From Gammaproteobacteria bacterium (lineage in GTDB: Bacteria; Gemmatimonadota; Gemmatimonadetes; Longimicrobiales; Gaopeijiaceae): a stretch of 64,000 nucleotides of DNA. Both the position numbers and the translations under genes were made by a program. The notes under the pieces are model-generated. The model was not told the origin of the DNA, did not search any database, and saw nothing but the letters and a program-made list of their open reading frames with translations. Positions 48,004 to 63,732 of the stretch are shown piece after piece (the first letter of the stretch is position 1; each line of letters begins with the position of its first letter). The DNA lies in assembly GCA_009840525.1 (NCBI GenBank), contig VXNP01000050.1, positions 46,931 to 110,930 on the forward strand. The letters are read 5' to 3'.

Positions 48004-48890
48004 CCGGTACGGCGGCCCCGTTGTTCGCGGGCACCTCGCTGAACGCACGCGACCGGAAGGTCGAGTGGCTGGTGCGCGCTCTGCTCGGACTGATGACCGC
48101 GCTGCTCATCCTCCCGGTCGTGATCATCATGGCACTGCTGGTCGTAGAGGGCGGCCCCGTCATCTCCTGGGAGTTTCTTACCTCGCCGCCGGTGGACGGC
48201 ATGACCGCCGGGGGCATTCTACCCGCCCTGGTGGGGACGGTGTGGCTGGTGGTCGTGGCGCTGATCGCGTCGGTGCCCGTGGGAGTGGCGGCCGCCGTCT
48301 ACCTGAGCGAGTACGCCCCCGACAACTGGCTCACACGCGCCATAAACCTCGCGATCATCAACCTGGCGGGGGTGCCGTCGATCGTGCACGCCCTGTTCGG
48401 GGTGGGCGCCTTCGTGCTCTTCTTCCGCTTCGGCACGAGCATTCTGGCGGCCAGCCTCACCCTGGCGGTGATGACGCTCCCGGTCGTCATCGTGTCCACC
48501 CGCGAGTCGCTGCAAGCGGTGCCGCGAGCCTTTCGGGAGGCCTGCTGGAACATGGGCGCAACCCGCTGGCAGACCATTCGCCGCATCGTGCTGCCCAACG
48601 CCCTCAGCGGCATCCTCACGGGCATCATCCTGGAGGTGTCGCGCACCTCGGGAGAGACCGCTCCCATCATGTTCACGGGCGCGGCTTTCTTCCTCCCGTT
48701 CCTGCCCCAGGGGGTCCTGGACCAGACGATGGCGATGTCGCTCCACCTGTTCGTGATCACCACGCAGGTGCCCGACGCTCCGGAAGCGCTGCCCTTCGGA
48801 GTGGCGCTGGTGCTGATTTCCATGGTGCTGGCGATGAACGCGCTCTCCATCGCTTTTCGCATGTACGTGCGCGGGAGGAAGAAGTGGTAG
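48000..48890 (+). CDS. pstA: phosphate ABC transporter permease PstA
   Basis: 296 residues, six helices. EAA loop: RAFREACWNMGATRWQTIRRIVLPNAL. SVPVGVAAAVYLSEYAPDN, NLAGVPSIVHALFGVGAFV and SRTSGETAPIMFTGAAFF are typical of PstA. The ATG at 48000 overlaps pstC; the stop overlaps the first ATPase start. With PstC it forms the channel for phosphate. Confidence 0.97.
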   Translation: MTGTAAPLFAGTSLNARDRKVEWLVRALLGLMTALLILPVVIIMALLVVEGGPVISWEFLTSPPVDGMTAGGILPALVGTVWLVVVALIASVPVGVAAAVYLSEYAPDNWLTRAINLAIINLAGVPSIVHALFGVGAFVLFFRFGTSILAASLTLAVMTLPVVIVSTRESLQAVPRAFREACWNMGATRWQTIRRIVLPNALSGILTGIILEVSRTSGETAPIMFTGAAFFLPFLPQGVLDQTMAMSLHLFVITTQVPDAPEALPFGVALVLISMVLAMNALSIAFRMYVRGRKKW

Positions 48891-49687
48891 GGGACGTGGC
48901 GCCCAACGGCGGCGGCGCCTCGGCCGATGCGCTCTCCGCGAAGGTGGTCGTGCAGAACCTCACGATTCGCTACGGGAACCAGGTGGCGCTGCGAGGGCTG
49001 GATCTCTCCATTCGCCGGAACGAGATCCTCGGGGTCATCGGCCCCGCGGGCTCGGGCAAGACCTCGTTCCTGCGCGCCCTCAACCGCATGGACGAGTTCA
49101 TCCCCGGGATGGAGGTGGAGGGCCGGATCACCTTCGACGGCCGCGATATCCGCCGCGTTCGCAACGTGTACGCCCTGCGCAGCCGCATCGGCGTGGTCTT
49201 TCCGCTCCCGGTGGGGCTCCCGCTCACCGTCTACGAGAACGTGGCGCTGGCTCCGCGCCTGCGGGGCGTGCGCAAGGGGAGCGAGCTCGACGAGATCGTC
49301 GAACGATGCCTGCGGCGGGCCGCCCTGTGGGAGGAGGTCAAGGACCGCCTGGACTCGCTCGGGAGCCTGCTCTCCGGAGGCCAGCAGCAGCGCCTCACCA
49401 TCGCGCGCGCGCTTTCGCAGGAACCCGATCTCCTGCTCCTGGACGAGTTCTCGATCGCCGTGGATCCGGTTACCACGATGCGCATCGAAGAAGTCCTCAA
49501 GGAGTTGAAGCATGAGATGTCGATCGTGCTGGTGACCAATCTGGTGCAGCAGGCACGGCGCCTGGCGGACCGGACCGCGTTCTTCCTGACCGGCGAGCAC
49601 GTCGAAACCAGCGACACGGCGCGCATCTTCAGCGGCATCGTCAAGGACCCGCGCACGCACGACTACATCGAGGGACGCTTTGGCTGA
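48884..49687 (+). CDS. pstB: phosphate ABC transporter ATPase, first copy (degenerate Q- and H-loops)
   Basis: 267 residues. Walker A GPAGSGKT (53-60), an intact signature LSGGQ (163-167) and Walker B LLLLDE (Glu188) are present. The Q-loop, where PstB has VFQ, reads VFP (Pro107), and the H-loop histidine is replaced by Asn219 (VTNLVQQ instead of VTHNMQQ). These two residues normally help its own Walker site hydrolyse ATP. The copy is therefore expected to supply a working signature to the partner but to have a weak site of its own. GTG start with GGGAGG upstream; the stop overlaps the second copy by 8 bases. Confidence 0.93.
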   Translation: MVGDVAPNGGGASADALSAKVVVQNLTIRYGNQVALRGLDLSIRRNEILGVIGPAGSGKTSFLRALNRMDEFIPGMEVEGRITFDGRDIRRVRNVYALRSRIGVVFPLPVGLPLTVYENVALAPRLRGVRKGSELDEIVERCLRRAALWEEVKDRLDSLGSLLSGGQQQRLTIARALSQEPDLLLLDEFSIAVDPVTTMRIEEVLKELKHEMSIVLVTNLVQQARRLADRTAFFLTGEHVETSDTARIFSGIVKDPRTHDYIEGRFG

Positions 49688-50468
49688 GCCGGCTGCTGCT
49701 CCCGCGCCTGCCGCGATCGCGACCCGCGGCCTCAACCTCTGGTATGGAGACTTCCAGGCCCTGTTCGATGTCAACCTGCACGTGAAGCAGGGCATCATCA
49801 CCTCGCTCATCGGTCCCTCGGGCTGCGGCAAGTCCACCCTGCTCAGGAGCTGCAACCGCATCAACGAGCGGCTCGGCTACGTCCGTACCACGGGAAGCAT
49901 CGAGATTCTGGGCCAGGACATCTACGCGCCGGAGGTGGAGCTGGTGCAGGTGCGCAAGCAGGTGGGGATGGTGTTTCAGCGCCCAAATCCCCTGCCGCTC
50001 TCCATCCGCGACAACGTGAGCTTCGGCCACCGACTGCACGCCCGCGGCCGCCGCGTCTCGCGCTCCCGCAAGGAGGAACTGGTCGAGGATGCCCTGCGCA
50101 AGGTGCTGCTCTGGGACTCGGTCAAGGATCGGCTCGACACCCTGGCCACCGAGCTGTCGCTCGAGGCGCAGCAGAAGCTCTGCATCGCGCGGTTGCTCCC
50201 CGTGAAGCCCGCGGTGCTGCTGATGGACGAGCCCTGTTCCGCCCTCGATCCCAAGGGAACCGAGGCGGTGGAGGAGCTCATCTGGGAGCTGAGGGGCGAG
50301 TTCACGATCCTTATCGTGACCCACAACATGGCCCAGGCGCGGCGAGCCAGCGAAGAGACCGTGTTCATGCTGATCGGCAAGGTGATCGAGCACGGCCTTA
50401 CCGAGGACATCTTCCTGAACCCGCAGCACCGGCAGACGGCCGACTACATCGAGGGGCGCTACGGCTGA
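49680..50468 (+). CDS. pstB: phosphate ABC transporter ATPase, second copy (degenerate signature)
   Basis: 262 residues. Walker A GPSGCGKS (45-52), Gln100 in VFQRPNPLP, Walker B VLLMDE (Glu184) and His215 in VTHNMAQ are intact. The ABC signature reads LSLEA (159-163) instead of LSGGQ. So this copy has a full catalytic half-site but cannot offer a normal signature to its partner, the mirror image of the upstream copy. TTG start at 49680, overlapping the first pstB. Last gene of the operon; a hairpin follows. Confidence 0.93.
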   Translation: MAEPAAAPAPAAIATRGLNLWYGDFQALFDVNLHVKQGIITSLIGPSGCGKSTLLRSCNRINERLGYVRTTGSIEILGQDIYAPEVELVQVRKQVGMVFQRPNPLPLSIRDNVSFGHRLHARGRRVSRSRKEELVEDALRKVLLWDSVKDRLDTLATELSLEAQQKLCIARLLPVKPAVLLMDEPCSALDPKGTEAVEELIWELRGEFTILIVTHNMAQARRASEETVFMLIGKVIEHGLTEDIFLNPQHRQTADYIEGRYG

Positions 50469-53045: not shown

Positions 53046-53549
53046 ATGATTGGAAACAGAGTTGAGGCAGCGCTCAACGAGCAGATCGTGCAGGAGTTCT
53101 ACGCCAGCCAGTACTACCTTTCCATGAGCGCGCACTTCGAGCGGACGGGATATCCGGGCTTCGCCCACTGGATGCGCATGCAGGCGGACGAGGAGCGGGA
53201 GCACGCGCTGCGCATCTTCGACTTCGTGAACGACCGCGCCGGCCGCGTCGATCTCGGCCGCATCGACGCCCCGCCCTCGGATTTCGGCTCGCCGCTGGAG
53301 GTGTTCCAGGCGGCGCTGGCCCACGAACGCAGGGTGACCGCGCTCATCGGCGAACTTTACCGCCTCGCCATGGAGGAGACCGACTACCCTACCCAGGTGA
53401 TGCTGCAGTGGTTCGTCAACGAGCAGGTGCAGGAGGAGAAGGTCGCCTCCGACATCGTCGACCGGCTGCGCCTGGCGGGCGACGACAAGTCGGCGCTGCT
53501 GCTGCTCGAAACGGAACTCGGCCAGCGGCAGGGCGAGGCCGAGGGTTGA
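53046..53549 (+). CDS. ferritin
   Basis: 167 residues, four-helix bundle. Ferroxidase ligands are visible in EFYASQYYLS (Glu), QADEEREHALRIF (Glu, His), ALAHERRVT (Glu) and the later Gln/Glu of NEQVQEEK. No Met ligand for haem, so a non-haem ferritin of the FtnA type. It oxidises and stores iron. Its TGA is followed immediately by the convergent stop of the DUF1592 gene. Confidence 0.95.
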   Translation: MIGNRVEAALNEQIVQEFYASQYYLSMSAHFERTGYPGFAHWMRMQADEEREHALRIFDFVNDRAGRVDLGRIDAPPSDFGSPLEVFQAALAHERRVTALIGELYRLAMEETDYPTQVMLQWFVNEQVQEEKVASDIVDRLRLAGDDKSALLLLETELGQRQGEAEG

Positions 53550-56006
53550 TCAGCCTCCGCTCTGCGCGTCCTCCGCCGTGGTGGCGCTCTTCATCTGGAA
53601 GGCCTCGCTCTCGACCACGCCGCGAATAAAGGCCGACATGCGGTTGCCTTCGGTCGCCGCCTTGCGCGCGATCTCGCGGATCTCGGGCTGGTCGTAGTAC
53701 TCCATCCGGCGACCCAGCGCGTACGCCATCAGGTTCGCGGTGAAGTGGCGGATCAGCGGTTCGGGGCGCTCCAGCAGGACGGCGCGCAACTCCTGCGGGG
53801 TGGTCACGTCGCTCCCGTCGTAGAAGGTCCCGCGCGTGTCGAGCGGGATGCCGTGCTCGCGGATGCGCCACTTGCCGGTCACGTCGAAGTTGTCGAGCGC
53901 CAGCCCGATCGGGTCCATGAACTGGTGACAGGCGTTGCACACCGGGCTCGCCCGGTGCCGCTCCATGCGCTCGCGCGTCGTCAGGATGGTGGTGCCCTCG
54001 ACGGCCTCGGTCTCTTCCAGGTCGGGAACGCCCGGCGGAGGGGGCGGCGGCGGCGTGCCCAGAACCACCTCCATCACCCACTTGCCGCGCAACACCGGTG
54101 AAGTACGGTTGGCCACCGAGGTCAGGGTGAGGACGCTGCCGTGGCCGAAGATGCCTGCCCGGCGATCGTCCGGGTACTCGACGCGCTGGAACTCCTCGCC
54201 CACGACCCCCGGGATCCCGTAGTGCTTGGCCAGCCGTTCGTTCACGAAGGTGTAGTCGGCCGTGTAGAGCTCCAGGAAGCTGCGGTCCTCCCGCACCAGG
54301 TTCATGAAGAGGAGTTCCGTCTCCCTCGTCATGGCGTCGGCCAACTGCTGGTGGTAGTCGGGGAACATCAGGCGGTCCGGATGCACCAGATCCAGGTCCT
54401 GGAGGCGCAGCCACTGGTTGGCGAAGCGGGTGCCGAGCGCGTCGGAACGCGGGTCGGCGATCATGCGCTCGACCTGGTCTCGCAGGTTGTCCGAGAGCCT
54501 GCCGCGCTCGGCCAGCGACACCAGTTCCTCGTCGGGAGGCGTGCCCCAGAGGAAGTAGGAGAGCCGGCTGGCCAGGGCCAGCTCGCTGATCCGGTAGCTG
54601 CCGTCGCGCGCGCTGCCCGCGACCGGCTCGAAGCGGAACACGAAGTCGGGACTGGCCAGAATTGCCTGCAGGGCGAGCCGCACGCCGGTCTCGAAGCCGC
54701 CCGCGTCCTCGCCCTGGCGGTAGAACTCCATGAGTTCGGAGACGTCGAGTTCGGTCAGTGAGCGCCGGAACGCGGCAGAGCCGAGACGGGTCACGATGTC
54801 GCGCGCGCAAGCCTCCGCCTCCTCGGGGGCGGTGGGACGGCAGGTGAAGATGCGGCGGCGCACCGGGTTCTCGGACACGCCGGTCACCTGGAACGGGCCC
54901 GCAATGGTCAGATCCTTGATGTGCGGGAGGGCGGTGATACCGTACCCGTCCGCGCCGATGCGGCGATCGGCCAGCGACCAGTCGTGGCGCGACATGAGGT
55001 CGGGCACCGGTCCCTCGAACTGCTTGAGGAAGACCGCCGAGACCTGGTGCGGTCCGGCGGTGACGAAGAAGGACTGGCTCTCCTGGTTCGCTCCGTTGGG
55101 ATCGGCCACGTGCATGAACTGGTCGACGTTGAGCAGGGCGACGCGCTCACCGTCGATGGAGATCTCGATCTGCTCACCCTGGGTGACGTTGCCGAAGAAC
55201 TCTCCGGTGGTCGTGTGGTCGAAGGCCATCTTCACGCTGTACTCGCCATCGGCCGGGAAGTTGTGCAGGGCGGAGATGCCGCCGCGGGTGCCGAAGGGCG
55301 CCCCGTCGATGCGCTCCCACTGGGAGAAGTAACCGGACTTGGAGTACGTGGTCTCGCTGGGCTGGACTTCGAGGTTGCCGACCGCGAGCCGGCTGATCTC
55401 GGCGGCGGCGTTCAGATACGCGTCCATGAGCGTGGGGGAGAGCAACTGGACGTCGGCGATGTTGTCGAAATTGGCGCTCTTGGTGTCGAGAGGCAGGTAG
55501 AGGCCGGCGTCGACCCTGAGCCCCAGCAGGCTCTCGACGGAGGCCTCGTATTCGGCTCGGTTGAGGCGCTGGAAGGTGCGGGTGCCGGGGTTGGGATTGC
55601 GGGCCGCGGCTTCGTCCAGGGTGGACTCGAGCGTCTCGACCAGTGCCACCAGGGAGTCACCGCCGGGCCGGGGAAAGCCCGGGGGCGGCATCATGCCGGC
55701 GCGCAGCTTCATGATCATGCGCTCGGCGGTCTGGGCGTTGTCGGTCGCGTTCTCGACCTCGAAGGCCTGCAGGGTGGTGTTGCCGGTCAGGAGGACGTCG
55801 TTGTGGCACACGACGCAATAAGTGCGCACCAGGGTGGTGAGGGTCTCCGGAGCGGGGTGCGGCGCGCGCTCGGAACTCGCCGGGCGCATGGACGAGAAGT
55901 CGGTCACGGGCTCCACGCCCAAGGGTCCGCCAGCCAGTGAAATCCCGGGATCGCTACCCGTTATGGCCACGCCGAGAACCATCATTCCGGCGACAAGTAT
56001 CCTCAT
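53550..56006 (-). CDS. DUF1592/DUF1588-family cytochrome-like protein (PSD1 type)
   Basis: 818 residues, exported. N-terminal haem motif CVVCH (Cys64, Cys67, His68). Then in order: DUF1587-like FQRLNRAEYEASVESLLGL, a carbohydrate-binding-like region (about 210-350), DUF1592 around FRRSLTELDVSELMEFY, DUF1588 with PVCNACHQFMDPIGLALDNFD, and DUF1585 at the end (ALGRRMEYYD, IRGVVESEAFQMK). Such proteins are abundant in Planctomycetota and relatives and are usually paired with DUF1552; the reaction is unknown. A Pro7 run (GTPPPPPPPG) lies before DUF1588. The ankyrin gene is 88 bp upstream. Confidence 0.92.
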   Translation of the reverse strand: MRILVAGMMVLGVAITGSDPGISLAGGPLGVEPVTDFSSMRPASSERAPHPAPETLTTLVRTYCVVCHNDVLLTGNTTLQAFEVENATDNAQTAERMIMKLRAGMMPPPGFPRPGGDSLVALVETLESTLDEAAARNPNPGTRTFQRLNRAEYEASVESLLGLRVDAGLYLPLDTKSANFDNIADVQLLSPTLMDAYLNAAAEISRLAVGNLEVQPSETTYSKSGYFSQWERIDGAPFGTRGGISALHNFPADGEYSVKMAFDHTTTGEFFGNVTQGEQIEISIDGERVALLNVDQFMHVADPNGANQESQSFFVTAGPHQVSAVFLKQFEGPVPDLMSRHDWSLADRRIGADGYGITALPHIKDLTIAGPFQVTGVSENPVRRRIFTCRPTAPEEAEACARDIVTRLGSAAFRRSLTELDVSELMEFYRQGEDAGGFETGVRLALQAILASPDFVFRFEPVAGSARDGSYRISELALASRLSYFLWGTPPDEELVSLAERGRLSDNLRDQVERMIADPRSDALGTRFANQWLRLQDLDLVHPDRLMFPDYHQQLADAMTRETELLFMNLVREDRSFLELYTADYTFVNERLAKHYGIPGVVGEEFQRVEYPDDRRAGIFGHGSVLTLTSVANRTSPVLRGKWVMEVVLGTPPPPPPPGVPDLEETEAVEGTTILTTRERMERHRASPVCNACHQFMDPIGLALDNFDVTGKWRIREHGIPLDTRGTFYDGSDVTTPQELRAVLLERPEPLIRHFTANLMAYALGRRMEYYDQPEIREIARKAATEGNRMSAFIRGVVESEAFQMKSATTAEDAQSGG

Positions 56007-56094
56007 CGTGCCTCACCTCGTCTGAAAAAACACATCAAGTCCGTGGCCGGTCCGCTCCCGCACCTGCCGGGTGAGGCAGACCACCCCGATCCGG

Positions 56095-57936
56095 TCAGCA
56101 GGAAACGCAGTTGTGGTTGTTGATGGCGCCCATGCCCTCGAGCAGCGCGATGGTCTCCGGGAAGGGCTGGATGCGCTGCACGGGGCCGTTGGCCATGTCG
56201 ACCACTGTCTGGCCGCGCCGGCTCACCGCCATCACGTCGGCGCCCTTCTCCACCAGGTAGAGGATCAACTCGTTGTCGCCGCGCGCCGCCGCGAAGTGCA
56301 GCGGCGTGTAGCCGTTGTGGTCGCGTGCGTTCACGTCGGCGCCCAGCTCCTCGACCAGCAACCGCACGGACGGCATCCAGCCGTTGGGGACATGGATGTG
56401 CGACACCCCCGCGCGCCCGGCCCCGTCACCGCCGCTGTACCCCACACCGGAGGCGGCGTGAATGGGGAACACGCCCGGGCCGCCGGTGGGCACCGGGGGC
56501 AGGCCCGAGGGGTCGACCCGGTCGCCGCCTCCACCGCCGTAGCCTCCGCGCCTGCGCGCCGGGGGCCTGCGGGTGGGGGTGGTGGGATCGGCGCCGTACT
56601 GGAGCAGGAGCCGCATCGCCTTCTCGTCGGTGCCGTGGGCTGCCCGCCAGAAGGGGCTCGCGCCCCACATGTTCACGCTCAACTGGGCGAAGTTGTACTC
56701 CAGGTACCAGAGGTGGCGGTCCAGCTGCACGTTGGGATCGGCGCCCGCTTCGAGCAGCGCCTCCATCACCTGCAGGTGCGTGACCTCCTGCTGCTTGAAG
56801 GCCTGCTGCTGGGGATAGCGCGTCTTGGGCGCGTACTGGGTGTTGATGACGGCGAAGAGCGGGGTCGCCCCGGAGAGGTCGGCCAGCCTGGCGTCGGCGC
56901 CGCGCTCGAGCAGCTCGAGCATCAGGTCGAAGTGCCCGTTGATGGCCGCGATCAGGAGCGGGCTGTTCCTCTCGCCCCCGCTCACCTGGTTGACGTCGGC
57001 GCCCGCGTCGAGGAGGGCGTGGACCACGTCGCGGAAGCCGTCGCGGCTGGCGTGCAGCAGCGCGGTCAGCCCGCCCTGGTTCCCCACCATCTCGTGGTAC
57101 GAGAGCGCGTTGGTCTGGAGCAGGGCGAGCTGGTTCTCCGTCATCTCCTGGTCGGTGGCCTTGCCGATGATCTCCTCGGGAGAAAGCGCCTGCACCCGCC
57201 ACGCCGCCTCCGACGCCGCCTGTACCTGCTGCGGCGTGGGTGCCCACAGGCCCGGGTTGTCGGACTGCGCCCGGAACGACTCCAGCACCTCGTTGCGCGC
57301 CGCCCTGGCCGCCCTGTCCACCGCGTAGCGGGTGGGCATGTGCAGCACGTTTTCGGTCAGCGATACGTCCGCGCCGAGTTCGACCAGGGTGTTCACGGCC
57401 ACCAGCCGGTTGAAGCCGGCCGCGAAGATGAGCGGCGTCTGCCCCCACTGGTGGTCGCGCGCGTCGACCTCCGCCCCGCCGGCCGCCAGGGTCCGGATCG
57501 CCTCGCCGCTGCCGGCCTTGGCCGCCAGGTGCATCGGGGTTACCCCGGTGCGCGAGGTCGCCACCGCCGGATCGGCCCCGGCTTCCACCAGTTGCCCGAT
57601 CACTTCGGCGTGCCCGCCGCGGGCCGCCATGTGCATCGGGGTGTAGGCGTCGTTGCGGGTCAGCGGAGCCAGATTGGCACCCGCGTAGATGAGCACGCCG
57701 GCCACGGCGGCGTCCCCGTTGTCGGCGGCCCAGTGCAGCGCGGTCAGGCCGTCGCTGTGGGGGGCGTTCACGTCGGCGCCGCTCCTGAGCAGCTCCCTCA
57801 CCTCGTCCAGGTCGCCGCGCATGGCCGCGTCGGCCACGGGGGAGTCGGGGGGAGTCGCCGCGGTCGCGACCAGCAGCACCAGCAGCGCCGCAACCACGTC
57901 AAGGCGGGGGCGCGCACTTCTTCTTCCGTCCTTCAT
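56095..57936 (-). CDS. exported ankyrin-repeat protein
   Basis: 613 residues, N-terminal hydrophobic signal (VVAALLVLLVATAATP). At least nine ankyrin repeats: GLTALHWAADNGDAAVAGVL, YTPMHMAARGGHAEVIGQL, VTPMHLAAKAGSGEAIRTLA, and later NSPLLIAAINGHFDLMLEL and YTPLHFAAARGDNELILYL. Two non-ankyrin inserts occur: about 215-290 (Gln/Ala-rich helices) and a Gly/Arg-rich stretch near 475. The chain ends NNHNCVSC, a CxxC tail. It lies between the DUF1552 and DUF1592 genes; probably a scaffold for them in the periplasm. Confidence 0.9.
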   Translation of the reverse strand: MKDGRRSARPRLDVVAALLVLLVATAATPPDSPVADAAMRGDLDEVRELLRSGADVNAPHSDGLTALHWAADNGDAAVAGVLIYAGANLAPLTRNDAYTPMHMAARGGHAEVIGQLVEAGADPAVATSRTGVTPMHLAAKAGSGEAIRTLAAGGAEVDARDHQWGQTPLIFAAGFNRLVAVNTLVELGADVSLTENVLHMPTRYAVDRAARAARNEVLESFRAQSDNPGLWAPTPQQVQAASEAAWRVQALSPEEIIGKATDQEMTENQLALLQTNALSYHEMVGNQGGLTALLHASRDGFRDVVHALLDAGADVNQVSGGERNSPLLIAAINGHFDLMLELLERGADARLADLSGATPLFAVINTQYAPKTRYPQQQAFKQQEVTHLQVMEALLEAGADPNVQLDRHLWYLEYNFAQLSVNMWGASPFWRAAHGTDEKAMRLLLQYGADPTTPTRRPPARRRGGYGGGGGDRVDPSGLPPVPTGGPGVFPIHAASGVGYSGGDGAGRAGVSHIHVPNGWMPSVRLLVEELGADVNARDHNGYTPLHFAAARGDNELILYLVEKGADVMAVSRRGQTVVDMANGPVQRIQPFPETIALLEGMGAINNHNCVSC

Positions 57937-57996
57937 CTCGCCTCCGGCTATTATCCTGGATGCGGCCCCCCGCGGGGAGAGGCCGATCCGAGTTCG

Positions 57997-59421
57997 TCAG
58001 CTGCCGCTGGCCTGCTCCACCATCGAGGTCGGCATGGACAGGGCGAATTCCCCGGTGCTGTTGCCGAAGCCGTCCATGTCGTCGAGGCCGAGCGTGTGAA
58101 GCAGGGTGAGCATCGGGTTGGCCAGCGGGGTTCCGTCCGGCGCCTTAAGGTGCAGGCCACCCTCCAGCCGTCCGTTGGCCCCGCCCAGCACGATGAAGGG
58201 CACCCGCTTGTGGTTGTGCAGGTTCGGGTCGCCCATCGCCGATCCGTAGAGGATCATGCTCTTGTCGAGCAGGTTCGAGTCGCCTTCCTCGATGCCCTTC
58301 AGCTTCTCCAGGAAGTAGGGAAGCGTGCTCACATGGTAGCGGTTGATGAGGTTGAACTCCGACACCGCCTCCGGGTTGCCGCCGTGGTGCGAGGCCGGGT
58401 GGAAGGGCTTGTCGGTGCCGCTCTCGGGGAAGACCCGCGCCGAGGAGTCGCGCCCCATCTTGAAGGAGAAGACGCGCGTCATGTCGGACTGGAAGGCTAG
58501 CGCCTGCACGTCCCACATCTGCTCGACGTGCTCGCGGAAGGAATCCGGCACCCCGGCCGGGGCCTCCGGCAGCTCGCGGGTCTCGCCGCTCTGGTTCTGC
58601 GCCTCGGTCATCTCGATGCGCCGCTCGAGCTCGCGGATGTTGTCCATGTAGCGGTCGAGGCGGGCCCGGTCCTCCAGCCCCAGTTCCGTCTTGAGGCGCG
58701 CGGCCCGTGCGGCCACCCAATCCAGGATGCTCCGGTTCTCACGCCGGCGCGCCACGCGATCCTCCGGGGTGCTGCCCGCCCCGAAGAGCTGGTCGAAGGC
58801 CACCCGTGGATCGCGGATGACGGGAAGCGGCTCGGTGGGGGAGGCCCAGCTGATCGAGTCGGTGTAGACGCAGGTGTAGCCGTACGCGCAGCCGCCCGAC
58901 TGGTCCACGTTCTCAATGCAGAGCTGCATCGACGGAATCGGCGTGTCCTGGCCGAAGCGCTGGGCGTACAACTGGTCCATCGACGTGCCGATGTACACGT
59001 CCGAGCCCTCGGTCTGCCGCGGGTGCGCCTGGGTCAGGTAGACCGCGCTGGTGCGGAAGTGGTCGCCCCCGATCTCCTTGGGCTGGAACGCCTCCGCCAT
59101 CTGGCAGTCCGTGTTGGACACGATGGTGAGGTAGTCGCGGTACGGCTCGAGAGAACTGAGGGCGCTGGTGCTCAGGTCGAAGTTCCGGCCGATCTGCGCC
59201 GGCGACCACAGATGCTGGGTCGCGCCCCAGTCGTTGGAGCCCGCCGCGCCGTGCACCATCTCGATGCCGACCAGGCGGGTCTTGTCGACCGCCGCCGCCA
59301 CCTCCCTCCAGCGGCCGCCCGCGGGAACCATGGCGTCCAGAAGCGGCAGTCCCACCGCCACTCCCGCGGCCCCGCGCAGGAAGGTACGCCGCGGGATGTG
59401 CTTGCCCGTGATGAAGTTCAT
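57997..59421 (-). CDS. DUF1552 family Tat-exported protein
   Basis: 474 residues. Tat signal IPRRTFLRGAAGVAVGLPLLDAMVP. The DUF1552 body contains HLWSPAQIGRNFDLST, SALSSLEPYRDYLTIVSNTDC, GDHFRTSAVYLTQAHP, the SRHHGG-like ASHHGGNPE, and YGSAMGDPNLHNHKRVPFIVLGG, resembling sulfatase/DUF1501-like folds in layout. Function unknown; almost always encoded with DUF1592 cytochromes. It starts this three-gene run, 117 bp after SusD. Confidence 0.92.
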   Translation of the reverse strand: MNFITGKHIPRRTFLRGAAGVAVGLPLLDAMVPAGGRWREVAAAVDKTRLVGIEMVHGAAGSNDWGATQHLWSPAQIGRNFDLSTSALSSLEPYRDYLTIVSNTDCQMAEAFQPKEIGGDHFRTSAVYLTQAHPRQTEGSDVYIGTSMDQLYAQRFGQDTPIPSMQLCIENVDQSGGCAYGYTCVYTDSISWASPTEPLPVIRDPRVAFDQLFGAGSTPEDRVARRRENRSILDWVAARAARLKTELGLEDRARLDRYMDNIRELERRIEMTEAQNQSGETRELPEAPAGVPDSFREHVEQMWDVQALAFQSDMTRVFSFKMGRDSSARVFPESGTDKPFHPASHHGGNPEAVSEFNLINRYHVSTLPYFLEKLKGIEEGDSNLLDKSMILYGSAMGDPNLHNHKRVPFIVLGGANGRLEGGLHLKAPDGTPLANPMLTLLHTLGLDDMDGFGNSTGEFALSMPTSMVEQASGS

Positions 59422-59477
59422 CGTCCAGCCCTCCAGAGGGAGTCAGTCCATGCCAACCATTCATAATAGCGGGCGGA

Positions 59478-59504
59478 GGCTCCCGGCACCATCAGCCGGG
59501 AGCC
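59478..59504 (-). terminator. hairpin after susD, with adjacent 16-bp tandem repeat
   Basis: GGCTCCCGGC (59478-59487) and GCCGGGAGCC (59495-59504) form a perfect 10-bp stem with a 7-base loop. A 16-base unit (gccgggagccgctccg) follows twice in tandem (59495-59526), copying one arm. On the minus strand the stem lies after the susD stop without a strong T-run. A TATTAT (59463-59468) just beyond may be the -10 of the DUF1552 gene. Confidence 0.45.
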
Positions 59505-59538
59505 GCTCCGGCCGGGAGCCGCTCCGCTCCGCGCTCGC

Positions 59539-60861
59539 TCAGCCGCCCAGGTTGGGGTTGCGCTGCCTCTCGTTCTCCGAGATGGGGAAGCAGGTCGCCA
59601 TGGGCTCCTCACCGAACAGCGGCGTCAGGTCTTCCCAGCGGGGATATGGCGCCACGCCCGGCGTACCCTCGGCCGCCCAGCGGCGCAGGTCCACCAGGCG
59701 CCGGCCCTCCAGCAGACCCTCGATCATGCGCTCGGTCTTCAGCGCCGTCCACGCCTCTTCCAGGCTCATGGCGTTCCAGGGTGCCAGCGGCTCCCCGGTG
59801 TTGTCGCTGATGTACATCGAGCGCACCTGATTGATCAGCTCCATGCCCCCCGCGTAGTTGCCGTCGCGGAGCATTCCCTCGGCCCGGTAGAGAAGCATCT
59901 CCGTCCCGGTCCCCAGGTGGATCGGCGTAGAGTCGGTCAGCCACGTGAAGTTGCTCCAGGGCACCTGGCCGAACCCCTGCAGCGATGCGTTGGCGAAGGG
60001 CTGGTCGGGAATCCTGTGCCACGCCACCCGCGGATCCCCGGATTCCGCGTAGTAGCCGGTGCCGGGGATGGTCACCGGAAGATCGCTGGCCTCGAGCGGC
60101 AGCAGCGAGCGGATGTTGGCCGGGGCCTGTTCACCGAAGAAGGTGAAGAGGAGCGTGAACTGCCGGTAGGGCTCGTCGGCGTTGGCCCATCCGACCCTGC
60201 TGCGGGTGTTGAAGAAATCCGGATCCGGCTGCACCTCGAACACGAAGTTGGGCGGCACCTGGGCGGCGTCGCTGAGCGCGCCTCCCCAGTCGCCCTTCGC
60301 TACGCGGACCTGGGCTCGCCCTGCGTACGCCGCGTTGCTCTGCGTGGAATTGGCCGCCGCACCCAGCGCGGACGTGAAATGACTCTCGGCCTCGTCGAGC
60401 GCCGCGCCCGGGGGCTGCGGTGACCCGGACCGCTTGAGCCACTCGCACCAGTTCTCACCGAGAATCCGGTAGGTGTAGCCGGCCCAGATGTGCGCCTGGG
60501 CCAGGTTCTCGCCGGTTACGCCCCTCTCCAGCGCGCTCTCGGCGATGAAGAGCGCCTGCTGCACGTTGGCCCAGTCGGCGTTCACCTCGTTCGCCGGCAG
60601 GGATCCGCCCTGGACCGTCGGGTCGTGGGAGTTGGTGTCGCCGCCCGGGAAGAGCACCCGGGTGATGACCGCCGTCGTGTAGAACACGAAGTTGGCGGTC
60701 TCCAGCACCATCCGCTCGGCTCCACGCACCAGCCCCGCGTGCGAGGTCTCCTCGTCCAGGAACTTGTCCTGCACGGGACCGGGGTTGGTCACTTCGCATG
60801 CGCCCGCGAGCACGAGCAGGGCGAGCGCGGGAGTCGTCAGTCGTCTGCTAATCCTGGTCAT
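59539..60861 (-). CDS. SusD/RagB-family outer-membrane lipoprotein
   Basis: 440 residues, lipobox ALLVLAGACE. SusD features: helical TPR-like N-half (LETANFVFY, AQAHIWAGYTYRILGENWCEW), the LLYRAEGMLRDGNYAGGMELINQVR block and C-terminal LKTERMIEGLLEGRRLVDLRRWA and FPISENERQRNPNL. It caps a SusC channel and binds the nutrient. 12 bp after susC. Confidence 0.93.
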   Translation of the reverse strand: MTRISRRLTTPALALLVLAGACEVTNPGPVQDKFLDEETSHAGLVRGAERMVLETANFVFYTTAVITRVLFPGGDTNSHDPTVQGGSLPANEVNADWANVQQALFIAESALERGVTGENLAQAHIWAGYTYRILGENWCEWLKRSGSPQPPGAALDEAESHFTSALGAAANSTQSNAAYAGRAQVRVAKGDWGGALSDAAQVPPNFVFEVQPDPDFFNTRSRVGWANADEPYRQFTLLFTFFGEQAPANIRSLLPLEASDLPVTIPGTGYYAESGDPRVAWHRIPDQPFANASLQGFGQVPWSNFTWLTDSTPIHLGTGTEMLLYRAEGMLRDGNYAGGMELINQVRSMYISDNTGEPLAPWNAMSLEEAWTALKTERMIEGLLEGRRLVDLRRWAAEGTPGVAPYPRWEDLTPLFGEEPMATCFPISENERQRNPNLGG

Positions 60862-60873
60862 CGTGCGCCCTCC

Positions 60874-63732
60874 TCAGAACTGGATCCGGAGCGAGGCCCG
60901 GAAGCTGATGGGAGTGGGGTTCCGGGCCGCGATGGCCTGTGCGAGGTCTATTCCTCCCTGGTTGCCGCGCATCTCGGGATCCAGATACGGCATGCGCTTC
61001 CAGGTGTAGGAGTTGTTGAGCGCCAGGGTCAGCAGCGCGCTGCTGATCCGCTCGGGGAAGACGAAGTCGACCGGTACCTGGGCGCTCAGGCTGCGCAGCC
61101 GGAAGAAGTCCGCGTCCCAGACCAGCCCGATGCGCCGGATGAGGGTCGGCGTGCAGCGGGCCCTCCAGAGCGCGGGCGTCGAGTCCAGAAGGGTGATGTT
61201 GGTGTTGTTGGCCTTGTCCTCGTAGTAGGGCCAGCAGAGGGGCATCTTGGCGCCCCGGGTGATGCCGCCCGGGTGGACGTTCGAGTCGCGCAGGTAGTGA
61301 CCGCCCTTGAACTCGCCGGCCGCGGAGATGTAGATGCCTCCGGGCAGCCGGATGCTCGTGTTGGGGCCGATGTTCAGCGTGGGGAAGTTGGGCCCGAAGA
61401 CGTGGTTCTGCTCGAAGACGGGATCGGCGATCTCGTCGGGGTTGACCACCCAGTGGTTGCGCACGACCGGAACCGGCTCGCCCGTCAGGATCCAGGTGCC
61501 CTGGCCGGCGCCGAACTCGGTGTCCTCGCTCAGCACCTCCGAGTTGTTCGTGGACACGTTGAGGCCGAGGTTCCATTCGTAGTCGGCGCTGACGAACGGG
61601 GTGGTGTTGACGGAGATCTCGAACCCCTCGTTCTTCAGTTCCCCGATGTTCTCCAACTGGCTGGTCTGGAACCCGTTGGACGGCACCTGCAGCACCGCGA
61701 ACAGCGCGTCGCTGGTCTTCTGATAGTAGTAGGTGAAGTCGATCGCCAGCCGGTCGTTCAGGAAGGAGGCGTCGAATCCGCCCTCCAGCTCGGTGGTGAC
61801 CTCGGGACCCAGGTCCGGATTGCCAAGGTTCTGGGGCAGGAAGGCGGGCTGGTCGTTCAGGCCCGCGGCCTCCCAGGTGCGCACGGCGTCGAACGCGCCC
61901 GGCGCGCGTCCCGATCTCCCCCAGGCGGCGCGCAGCTTCAGCGAGCCCATTCCGGGATCCCAGAATTCCTCGTCGGAGAGCACCCATGAACCGCTGACCT
62001 TCGGATAGACCTGCAGGCCGAAGCCCTCGCCGAAGGCACTGTTGCCGTCGACGCGGACGCCGCCCGTAATGAAGTACTTGTTGTTGATGTCGAAGACGTT
62101 CTGGAAGAAGAAGCCGGCGTTCCAGACCTTCTGCCGCGTCTCGAACCCCTGAGTCGCGGCGGCGGAGTTCACGGTGGGCTCCTCGGCGCCCGGGAAGCCC
62201 TCGCCCCAGGCTTCGACGGTGTGCTCGTCGTCGCCGACCGCCTGGCCGCCCCAGGAGAAGTTGGAGCGCAGGCCGTCCATGAGGTCGAAGCTGTAGGTGC
62301 CGACGTAGTCGAAGGTGATGAGCCGGTTCTGCCAGTGGTGGTTGAGCAGCGCGCCCCGGGGACGGAAGCGGAAACCGAAGGGACGCAGGTTGCGCGAGTC
62401 CTGCTGCAGCCAGTCGTAGCCGATGGTGAAGCGGTTGGTCAGGTCGGCCAGAGGCGTGTAGGTGAAGGTTCCGCCGGTGGTGAAGCGGTCGATGGTGTGG
62501 CGGATGTCGAAGGCGAGCACGCTGGCCGCGATCACTTCCGGAGTGTCGTCGGTGAAGTAGTTCGCCTTGCCCCGGTACACGTTGTGGCCCAGCCCCTGCG
62601 CGTTGCTCTGGGAGAGCTGCTGCGCGGACTCGCTCGAATACGAGGTGTTCCACTGGATCTGGAAGTTGGGGAGCGGCGTGAAGGTGAAGTTGCCGCGGGT
62701 GATGTATTCGGTGCTGAACTCGTTGGGCAGGTAGCCTTCCTGGTCGGAGAAGGAGCCCGAGACGAAGTACTGCAGGTTTTCCAGCCCGCCGCGCACCGAT
62801 GTCATGTAGTGCTGGTTGTGGCCCGTCTTGAGGAAGGGCTCCATGCGCAGGTACGGGAAGGGGGAGTCCGGGTAGTTCCCGAACTTGCGGCTCCACACCG
62901 CGCCCTGCTGGCTCTCCATCGTCCACTGGGGCGCCCCCACGGATCCGCGCTTGGTGAAGATCTGGATGACGCCGGCGGACGCCTCTGTGCCGTAGAGCGT
63001 AGTTGCCGCCGATCCCTTGATGATCTCAATGCGCTCGATGTCGTTGGGGTTGATCGAGTTGAGCGGCGTCTTCGAGGTGTTGGACCCGCGGATGCCGCGG
63101 TGGTCCGGAGCCGCCACGTGCGCCAGCGGCTCGCTGCGCATGCGCACCCCGTCGATGTAGATGATGGGGTTGTTGCTCATGGAGACGCTGGAGTTGCCCC
63201 GCAGGCGGATGGCGGGCGCGACGCCCAGCTCCCCCCCGGTGGCGCTCAGGTCGAGACCCGGCGCCGCGCCCTGGAGCAGGTCCACCATCTGGACCGGCCT
63301 GTCAGGCAGTTCCGTGACGTTGATTTGCGCGATCGAGTTGCCGATCTCGCGCCGGCGGGCTGCACCGGCGGTACCGGTGACCACGATCTCGTCGAGACCC
63401 AGGGCGAGCTCCTCGAGCACGAAGTCGGCGGTCACGGTCTCACCCGCGCCGACCGTCACCTCCTGCTCGGCGGAGCCGAGGCCGATGCGCTCGGCGCGCA
63501 CGGTGTAGGTGCCCGGCGGAACGTTGATGATGAGATACCGCCCGTTGGCGCGAGAGAGGCCGCCGAGTGCCTGGTCCGGAAGGTAGACCTGCGCCTCGGA
63601 GACCGGCCCGCCCGAACCGGATTCCGTTACGACACCGGTGATGCGGCCGTTCTCCTGCGCCTCGAGCGGAGGCGCGAGGAAGAGAGCCAGCACACCCGCA
63701 GCCAGCAGCGTGGTTCGCCAGGGTGATTGCAT
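60874..63732 (-). CDS. SusC/RagA-family TonB-dependent outer-membrane transporter
   Basis: 952 residues. Signal LFLAPPLEAQ; carboxypeptidase-D-like domain (about 28-110, GVVTESGSGGPVSEAQVYLP); plug (about 115-235) ending in IERIEIIKGSAATTLYGTEASAGVIQIFTKRG; then a 22-strand barrel with Asn/Tyr/Phe-rich strands, ending SFRASLRIQF. It imports a bound nutrient in an energy-dependent way with SusD. No glycosidase or sensor lies with it, so the ligand cannot be guessed. ATG 63732 with AGGAGG nine bases upstream; ATG 63774 is possible. Confidence 0.95.
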   Translation of the reverse strand: MQSPWRTTLLAAGVLALFLAPPLEAQENGRITGVVTESGSGGPVSEAQVYLPDQALGGLSRANGRYLIINVPPGTYTVRAERIGLGSAEQEVTVGAGETVTADFVLEELALGLDEIVVTGTAGAARRREIGNSIAQINVTELPDRPVQMVDLLQGAAPGLDLSATGGELGVAPAIRLRGNSSVSMSNNPIIYIDGVRMRSEPLAHVAAPDHRGIRGSNTSKTPLNSINPNDIERIEIIKGSAATTLYGTEASAGVIQIFTKRGSVGAPQWTMESQQGAVWSRKFGNYPDSPFPYLRMEPFLKTGHNQHYMTSVRGGLENLQYFVSGSFSDQEGYLPNEFSTEYITRGNFTFTPLPNFQIQWNTSYSSESAQQLSQSNAQGLGHNVYRGKANYFTDDTPEVIAASVLAFDIRHTIDRFTTGGTFTYTPLADLTNRFTIGYDWLQQDSRNLRPFGFRFRPRGALLNHHWQNRLITFDYVGTYSFDLMDGLRSNFSWGGQAVGDDEHTVEAWGEGFPGAEEPTVNSAAATQGFETRQKVWNAGFFFQNVFDINNKYFITGGVRVDGNSAFGEGFGLQVYPKVSGSWVLSDEEFWDPGMGSLKLRAAWGRSGRAPGAFDAVRTWEAAGLNDQPAFLPQNLGNPDLGPEVTTELEGGFDASFLNDRLAIDFTYYYQKTSDALFAVLQVPSNGFQTSQLENIGELKNEGFEISVNTTPFVSADYEWNLGLNVSTNNSEVLSEDTEFGAGQGTWILTGEPVPVVRNHWVVNPDEIADPVFEQNHVFGPNFPTLNIGPNTSIRLPGGIYISAAGEFKGGHYLRDSNVHPGGITRGAKMPLCWPYYEDKANNTNITLLDSTPALWRARCTPTLIRRIGLVWDADFFRLRSLSAQVPVDFVFPERISSALLTLALNNSYTWKRMPYLDPEMRGNQGGIDLAQAIAARNPTPISFRASLRIQF

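What the first reader, a model, noticed from the sequence alone, without database searches (positions are those of the whole stretch)
53550..63732. SusCD followed by DUF1552, ankyrin protein and DUF1592 cytochrome
DUF1552 and DUF1592/1588 proteins co-occur widely without a known reaction. Here a large secreted ankyrin protein with a CxxC tail lies between them, and a SusCD transporter lies directly upstream in the same direction. This hints at oxidative processing of a nutrient that SusC imports.
Basis: partly seen in the sequence, partly recalled or inferred. Interest (0 to 1): 0.55.

Follow-up and report, generated by a model that had tools for sequence, protein, structure and literature searches.

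The report
Secreted cytochrome, phosphatase-fold, ankyrin gene trio
A gene trio for three exported proteins (a two-heme cytochrome, a phosphatase-fold protein and an ankyrin-repeat protein) sits beside a nutrient importer here and recurs twelve times in this genome, so many bacterial ankyrin proteins assumed to manipulate hosts may instead be parts of an unstudied enzyme module.

Summary
In detail: SusC, SusD, DUF1552 (HXXSHH), ankyrin and DUF1592 genes lie head to tail on the minus strand at 63732-53550. The larger finding is the trio. This genome has 12 DUF1552, 12 DUF1592 and 12 close ankyrin genes, all at the same 12 places. In 61 genomes of the order the same 26 have both DUF1552 and this ankyrin, and 35 have neither; 138 of 147 DUF1552 genes have the ankyrin directly downstream. 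The usual order is DUF1592-DUF1552-ankyrin; the window's order is rare. Of 96 complete ankyrin genes, 94 end in CxxC. The DUF1592 protein has two invariant CxxCH sites and a modelled carbohydrate-binding-module-like domain that Pfam does not annotate. DUF1552 looks like the alkaline-phosphatase superfamily and carries an invariant twin arginine. SusCD is next to 5 of 12 trios here and 13 of 78 related loci: above chance and kept in close relatives, but optional. Most likely: an exported redox module, duplicated for different ligands, probably saccharides; the reaction is unknown. In two genomes most ankyrin genes belong to it, which questions the 'symbiosis factor' reading of ankyrin counts.

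The parts
60874..63732 (-). SusC/RagA-type TonB-dependent outer-membrane receptor (optional partner)
   Evidence: Pfam barrel, Plug, CarboxypepD_reg; TIGR04056 344.3 bits, just under its 368.25 cut-off
59539..60861 (-). SusD-like lipoprotein (optional partner)
   Evidence: PF07980 31.6 bits, cut-off 23.1
57997..59421 (-). DUF1552/HXXSHH protein, twin-arginine signal, alkaline-phosphatase-superfamily fold (modelled, low confidence)
   Evidence: PF07586 279.6 bits; R11 and R12 invariant in 39 of 39 rows; best Z 12.7, all 50 rows shown are of this superfamily; model pLDDT 57
59377..59391 (-). twin-arginine motif RRTFL of the DUF1552 protein
   Evidence: alignments A2 and A5
58384..58401 (-). HXXSHH motif (H341, S344, H345 invariant in 39 rows)
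56095..57936 (-). exported ankyrin-repeat protein, third member of the trio
   Evidence: PF00023/PF12796; 12 of 12 trios in this genome; 138 of 147 DUF1552 places in the order sample
56098..56109 (-). C-terminal CxxC codons of the ankyrin protein
   Evidence: 94 of 96 complete relatives end in CxxC, 69 of them with no other Cys in the matched body
53550..56006 (-). DUF1592-type diheme cytochrome c (cytochrome-PSD3-CBM-like-PSD5-PSD4-PSCyt3-PSD2)
   Evidence: Pfam; AlphaFold2 pLDDT 86.0, pTM 0.87
55803..55817 (-). first CxxCH (C64, C67, H68), invariant
   Evidence: 56 of 56 rows
53925..53939 (-). second CxxCH (C690, C693, H694), invariant
   Evidence: 56 of 56 rows
54879..55373 (-). CBM6/35/36-like beta-sandwich (residues 212-376), not annotated by Pfam
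   Evidence: Z 9.8, rmsd 2.5, 104 aligned to the CBM of XynJ 2dcj; least conserved domain, 0.47 against 0.60-0.75 pairwise identity among the 12 paralogues

Best explanation
The trio encodes an exported, probably periplasmic, redox module. DUF1552 is a Tat-exported alkaline-phosphatase-fold protein with a conserved histidine site. DUF1592 is a Sec-exported diheme cytochrome c with a built-in carbohydrate-binding-module-like domain. The ankyrin protein is an exported scaffold or assembly partner that holds the two together; its terminal CxxC acts as a thiol or metal site. I propose that the module captures a saccharide-type ligand through the CBM-like domain, acts on it at the DUF1552/DUF1592 pair, and passes electrons through the two hemes to the respiratory chain. 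Copies were duplicated for different ligands, and a SusCD importer was recruited beside some of them, the window's copy included. Shown: conserved gene set, gene order, motifs, folds by model, co-inheritance. Inferred: physical complex, saccharide ligand, direction of electron flow, role of CxxC.
For: Same 12 places for all three genes; the same 26 of 61 genomes hold DUF1552 and the ankyrin, 35 hold neither; 138 of 147 adjacency, and of the 9 exceptions 7 have a diverged ankyrin gene in the fetched stretch, one is a tandem pair sharing one ankyrin gene, one ends at a contig end. Pairwise distances of the 12 paralogues correlate between partners (DUF1552-ankyrin 0.76, DUF1552-DUF1592 0.64, ankyrin-DUF1592 0.40; Mantel p 1.5e-4, 5e-5, 0.02). 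A second lineage (G061; locus L049's record title says Vicinamibacterales) has 43 DUF1552, 34 of them within 6 kb of an ankyrin gene. Two invariant CxxCH, Cytochrome_CBB3/PSCyt1 matches in 42 and 34 of 56, CBM-like domain, AlkP-like fold, SusCD excess, and recurrent exported NAD-epimerase-family genes near 3 of 12 trios.
Against: No substrate or reaction is shown. Neighbouring genes are mixed (S9 and S15 peptidases, beta-lactamase-fold, MFS and epimerases) and no glycoside hydrolase was identified among the genes I scanned. CBM-like beta-sandwiches also resemble non-carbohydrate folds (TNF-like and C1q rows). The DUF1552 model is poor (pLDDT 57). Two of 12 ankyrins in this genome (C58, C15) lack the CxxC tail. 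One of 78 loci (L056) has this ankyrin gene with 7.5 kb of upstream sequence and no DUF1552 or DUF1592. SusCD is absent from most trios.
Confidence: 0.42

Rival explanations
1. The ankyrin protein is a dedicated maturation or heme-handling chaperone for the DUF1592 diheme cytochrome, comparable to bacterial ankyrin proteins that promote catalase; its CxxC tail would be a thiol donor for the CxxCH sites. The catalytic work is done by DUF1552 and DUF1592 alone.
For: Precedent: ankyrin proteins promote periplasmic catalase or traffic hemin (AnkB, Cj1386; cited in PMC10294975, passages). In G061 9 of 43 DUF1552 genes have no ankyrin gene within 6 kb, as a shared chaperone would allow. The tail cysteines are usually the only ones.
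Against: The CxxC tail is absent from the diverged ankyrins next to diverged trios, although their cytochromes also have CxxCH. One ankyrin copy per DUF1552 copy is more than a general chaperone needs. The ankyrin distances track DUF1552 better than the cytochrome (0.76 against 0.40).
Confidence: 0.25
2. The trio is an envelope redox or stress module with no fixed link to nutrients; SusCD adjacency reflects the general clustering of TonB-receptor genes with genes for exported proteins.
For: 7 of 12 trios here and 65 of 78 loci lack same-strand SusC within 3 kb. DUF1552 and PSD1/PSC2 genes of Rhodopirellula are listed among stress-responsive genes (PMC2754498, passages).
Against: 5 of 17 SusC genes beside trios, three different arrangements, kept in near relatives. 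Twelve to 43 diverged copies per genome with the binding-like domain the most variable look like ligand diversification.
Confidence: 0.22
3. The ankyrin proteins are host-directed symbiosis effectors of sponge bacteria.
For: Sponge MAGs of Gemmatimonadota and Luteitaleia are reported rich in ankyrin proteins, read as host-interaction factors (PMC8163846, passages).
Against: The same trio occurs in records titled groundwater, Gemmatimonas, Baikal and HRbin33 (L036, L081, L097, L055). The ankyrin genes are tied to the DUF1552/DUF1592 genes.
Confidence: 0.05

Closest known systems
DUF1552 (HXXSHH) / PSCyt3-DUF1592 gene pairs of Planctomycetota and Verrucomicrobiota
   Same: Same two Pfam families; PMC5615132 (passages) reports PSCyt3 genes usually next to a family of unknown genes and suggests carbohydrate metabolism because some carry CBMs
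   Different: No ankyrin partner is mentioned in that paper's main text; here the ankyrin gene is nearly always present
AnkB-KatB and Cj1386-KatA ankyrin-catalase pairs
   Same: Exported or dedicated ankyrin protein encoded with a heme enzyme (passages of PMC10294975)
   Different: The partner is a diheme cytochrome c plus an AlkP-fold protein, not catalase; CxxC tail; three genes
Extracellular redox proteins Cbp2D/E of Cellvibrio and TERTU_2913/3803 of Teredinibacter
   Same: Exported redox or cytochrome-like domains linked to carbohydrate-binding or jelly-roll domains (abstracts and outlines of PMC12542752 and PMC10916295; listing of PMC8981238)
   Different: No homology to DUF1592 was tested; no AlkP-fold or ankyrin partner is named in what I saw
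Polysaccharide utilisation loci with SusCD
   Same: SusC-SusD directly upstream on the same strand
   Different: No glycoside hydrolase in the cluster; SusCD optional

Membership tests
DUF1552/HXXSHH (PF07586) | Score above the curated cut-off | tested here: met
   279.6 bits, cut-off 30
PSCyt/PSD diheme cytochromes (DUF1592 type) | PSD3, PSD5, PSD4, PSCyt3, PSD2 domains and CxxCH heme sites | tested here: met
   All five over cut-off; two CxxCH invariant in 56 of 56
Alkaline phosphatase superfamily | Core fold | tested here: met
   Best Z 12.7, all 50 rows shown belong to it, but the model has pLDDT 57 and Foldseek alone gave no E <= 0.001
Alkaline phosphatase superfamily | Canonical metal ligands and nucleophile | not tested
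   No residue mapping onto a solved member was made
SusC/RagA | TIGR04056 cut-off 368.25 bits | tested here: not met
   344.3 bits; so SusC-like rather than a formal member, although plug, barrel and the adjacent SusD fit
SusD | PF07980 cut-off | tested here: met
   31.6 against 23.1 bits
Polysaccharide utilisation locus | Glycoside hydrolase or lyase next to SusCD | tested here: not met
   None among the five proteins
AnkB-type catalase partner | Catalase gene next to the ankyrin gene | tested here: not met
   Neighbours in the window are DUF1552 and DUF1592
AnkB-type catalase partner | Binds heme or activates a heme enzyme | not testable with these tools
   Needs protein
CBM6/35/36 | Beta-sandwich fold | tested here: met
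   Z 9.8 over 104 residues, rmsd 2.5; other beta-sandwich families reach Z about 8
CBM6/35/36 | Sequence family match | tested here: inconclusive
   No CBM family was listed for any of 56 members at E <= 0.01
CBM6/35/36 | Carbohydrate binding | not testable with these tools
   Needs protein

The most novel reading that the evidence does not exclude
A new class of exported oxidoreductase: an alkaline-phosphatase-fold protein, a diheme CBM-bearing cytochrome and a CxxC-tailed ankyrin protein form one enzyme. It is multiplied 12 to 43 times per genome as a redox counterpart to glycoside-hydrolase and sulfatase families, each copy tuned to one ligand. It accounts for most of the ankyrin genes of sponge Gemmatimonadota and Vicinamibacteria that are now read as symbiosis factors.
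Probability: 0.25. Interest if true: 0.85.

Novelty: new variant of a known kind. Interest (0 to 1): 0.6.

Why it matters
DUF1552 and DUF1592 have no known reaction and no solved relative was found, yet a genome can carry 43 copies. Adding a near-obligate exported ankyrin partner, a CBM-like domain inside the cytochrome and a recurrent SusCD link gives a concrete complex and ligand class to test. It also makes an assumption testable: ankyrin proteins counted as host-interaction factors in sponge Gemmatimonadota (0.25% of genes) and Luteitaleia (0.55%; PMC8163846, passages) may mostly be parts of this module. Here 12 of 16 ankyrin genes in the window's genome and 35 of 39 in G061 are tied to DUF1552.

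Tried and rejected
Sequence search of solved structures with DUF1592 and DUF1552 profiles found no credible relative (best E 0.69 and 0.071, chance-like). NCBIfam names for the ankyrin protein (T4SS effectors and others) are all far below their cut-offs and reflect the repeat only; I reject them.

A structure of DUF1592 as one known enzyme fold: only the CBM-like part matched; the helical PSD domains gave no clear match, which does not show that the fold is new.

A single substrate from neighbouring genes: neighbours are mixed.

A disulfide link between the ankyrin CxxC and the invariant cysteines of DUF1552 (C178, C184) or DUF1592 (C389, C400): those pairs persist in copies whose ankyrin lacks the tail, so no dedicated pairing is shown.

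Sigma-70 promoter and terminator scans were uninformative: 0 and 2 found, 0.5 and 4.2 expected.

Print searches: 'DUF1552' or 'DUF1592' (4 papers), two or more of DUF1588/DUF1587/DUF1595/PSD1/HXXSHH (1), two or more of PSCyt/planctomycete-specific cytochrome/DUF1501/DUF1553/DUF1549/DUF1552 (2), ankyrin with planctomycete, cytochrome, gene cluster and DUF (0). No ankyrin-DUF1552-DUF1592 trio was found in what I saw of these; subscription papers and preprints are not in that library. PMC6004670 and PMC7789669 (passages) only list DUF1592 or DUF1588.

Full report
Observation. DUF1592 ends tail to tail with a ferritin-like gene at 53046-53549. The cluster thus looks like one operon SusC-SusD-DUF1552-ankyrin-DUF1592; no transcript evidence exists.

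The trio is a unit. The genome (3.99 Mb, 155 contigs) holds 12 DUF1552 and 12 DUF1592 matches and 12 strong ankyrin homologues (44-58% identity of the other 11 to the window's), all at the same 12 places. Pairwise distances correlate between partners. In 78 ankyrin-bearing loci from public genomes, chosen by ankyrin similarity alone, 68 have all three gene types by the script's count with a 150-bit floor; 9 lack one or two of the types even at the lower cut-offs. Eight of those 9 are cut by a contig end; the ninth, L056, is a real exception: 7.5 kb upstream of its ankyrin gene hold no DUF1552 or DUF1592. The commonest order is DUF1592-DUF1552-ankyrin, 38 loci with one set and 20 with two in tandem. 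In an order-wide sample of 61 genomes, DUF1552 and this ankyrin occur together in the same 26 and are both absent from 35. 138 of 147 DUF1552 places have the ankyrin next downstream on the same strand. I fetched all 9 exceptions: 7 have a diverged ankyrin gene in the fetched stretch (two on the other strand, three with other genes or more than 1 kb between), one is a tandem DUF1592-DUF1552 pair sharing one ankyrin gene, one ends at a contig end. The four strong ankyrin matches without DUF1552 sit at contig ends.

A second lineage. The genome behind L049 (record title Vicinamibacterales; handle G061) has 43 DUF1552. I fetched 20 stretches; 15 of 20 hold an ankyrin gene in the fetched stretch, in L124 more than 4 kb from DUF1552, and 5 of 20 (L116, L119, L126, L130, L132) do not. 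Genome-wide, 34 of 43 DUF1552 lie within 6 kb of an ankyrin gene, and 35 of 39 ankyrin genes within 6 kb of DUF1552; random placement gives 3.6 ankyrin genes, maximum 11 in 2,000 trials. The 39 genes are my merging of 133 matches, and only 150 of 213 candidates were scored, so 39 is a lower bound. In the window's genome I merge 61 matches into 16 ankyrin genes, 12 in trios.

Anatomy. DUF1592: N-terminal cytochrome (Cytochrome_CBB3 in 42, PSCyt1 in 34 of 56 members), PSD3, an unannotated beta-sandwich at 212-376, PSD5, PSD4, PSCyt3, PSD2. Both CxxCH sites and C389/C400 are invariant in 56 rows; M106, in a sequence KLRAGMMPPPG, is invariant too and would suit a distal heme ligand (my inference). 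The model is good (pLDDT 86). The sandwich matches CBM36, CBM35 and CBM6 best (Z 9.8) and is the least conserved domain among the 12 paralogues (0.47 against 0.60-0.75), as expected of a recognition domain. DUF1552: R11 and R12 are invariant in 39 of 39 rows, as are H341, S344, H345, H298, H402, C178 and C184; the fold is alkaline-phosphatase-like, from a weak model. Ankyrin: Sec-like N-terminus without a cysteine (by eye), three repeat blocks separated by variable linkers, and a terminal CxxC in 94 of 96 complete relatives; 69 of the 94 have no other cysteine in the matched body. Of the two exceptions one has the motif six residues further in and one lacks it. In this genome 10 of 12 have the tail; the C58 and C15 copies keep two tail cysteines but spread apart. 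The diverged ankyrins next to diverged trios lack the tail.

SusCD. But it is not general: same-strand SusC within 3 kb occurs at 5 of 12 trios here (window, C16, C149, C35, C15) and 13 of 78 loci, five of the 13 being the window's own cluster (only 28 of 78 loci have 3 kb of sequence on both sides, so the share is a lower bound). 17 SusC genes is my count; random placement predicts 0.4 beside trios, 5 observed, P about 3e-5. This null ignores that TonB-receptor genes tend to sit with genes for exported proteins. SusCD lies upstream, downstream or inside in different copies, which suggests repeated recruitment.

The window's variant. In L020-L023 an opposite-strand gene of 1065-1090 aa separates ankyrin and DUF1592; by its sequence it looks like a TolB-type propeller fused to an amidohydrolase (my reading, no family search). 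The window lacks it: homology to L020 stops 14 bp after the ankyrin stop and resumes about 3.6 kb later, with 44 bp in between; no close copy remains in the genome (best 39% identity). So the tidy contiguous order in the window is probably a recent deletion.

How it most likely works. Established: three gene products inherited as a set, with export signals by sequence, one with two c-type heme sites. By model: phosphatase-like fold and CBM-like domain. Inferred: complex formation, saccharide-type ligand, oxidation with electrons passing through the hemes, importer recruited for some copies. The main rival is that the ankyrin protein is an assembly or heme chaperone, as proposed for catalase partners (PMC10294975, passages; the primary papers were not read).

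What is known. PMC5615132 (passages) reports PSCyt3 genes next to an unknown family and suggests carbohydrate metabolism; its main text does not mention ankyrin. PMC8163846 (passages) reads ankyrin richness of sponge Gemmatimonadota and Luteitaleia as host interaction. The data here give a simpler reading for the two genomes counted, to be tested on those MAGs. That the near relatives are sponge MAGs I infer from isolate names (recalled, no call).

Noticed in passing
window 56010-56094 against L020 11857-15483: Four near relatives have an opposite-strand gene of 1065-1090 aa (looks like a TolB propeller-amidohydrolase) between ankyrin and DUF1592; the window has a deletion of about 3.6 kb there.
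   Followed up: yes
window 48890-50468: Two PstB-like ATPase genes in tandem after the phosphate-transporter permeases; the second reads LSLEAQQ where the ABC signature LSGGQQ is expected (sequence; names and motif recalled).
   Followed up: no
L019 12288-15248 (G000 C15): The SusC gene inside the C15 trio carries an in-frame TAG and reads as two ORFs.
   Followed up: no
L014 14155-15294, L016 13444-14571, L015 17173-18267: NAD-dependent epimerase-family genes with export-signal-like N-termini (Pfam Epimerase; Pfam TAT signal in the first) near 3 of 12 trios.
   Followed up: partly
L105 5562-15315: Tandem DUF1592-DUF1552-DUF1592-DUF1552 with a single ankyrin gene at the end, so one ankyrin protein may serve two pairs.
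   Followed up: no
L056 7543-9453: A CxxC-tailed ankyrin gene of this family with an MFS-like, a permease-like and a kinase-like gene upstream and no DUF1552 or DUF1592 within 7.5 kb (gene names by eye).
   Followed up: partly
L118 and L123 (G061): Vicinamibacterales clusters with two DUF1552 genes and two ankyrin genes; several ankyrin genes sit upstream or on the other strand, so order is looser than in Gemmatimonadota.
   Followed up: partly
window 53046-53549: Ferritin-like gene convergent with DUF1592, stop codon to stop codon without spacer; kept in L020 and L021.
   Followed up: no
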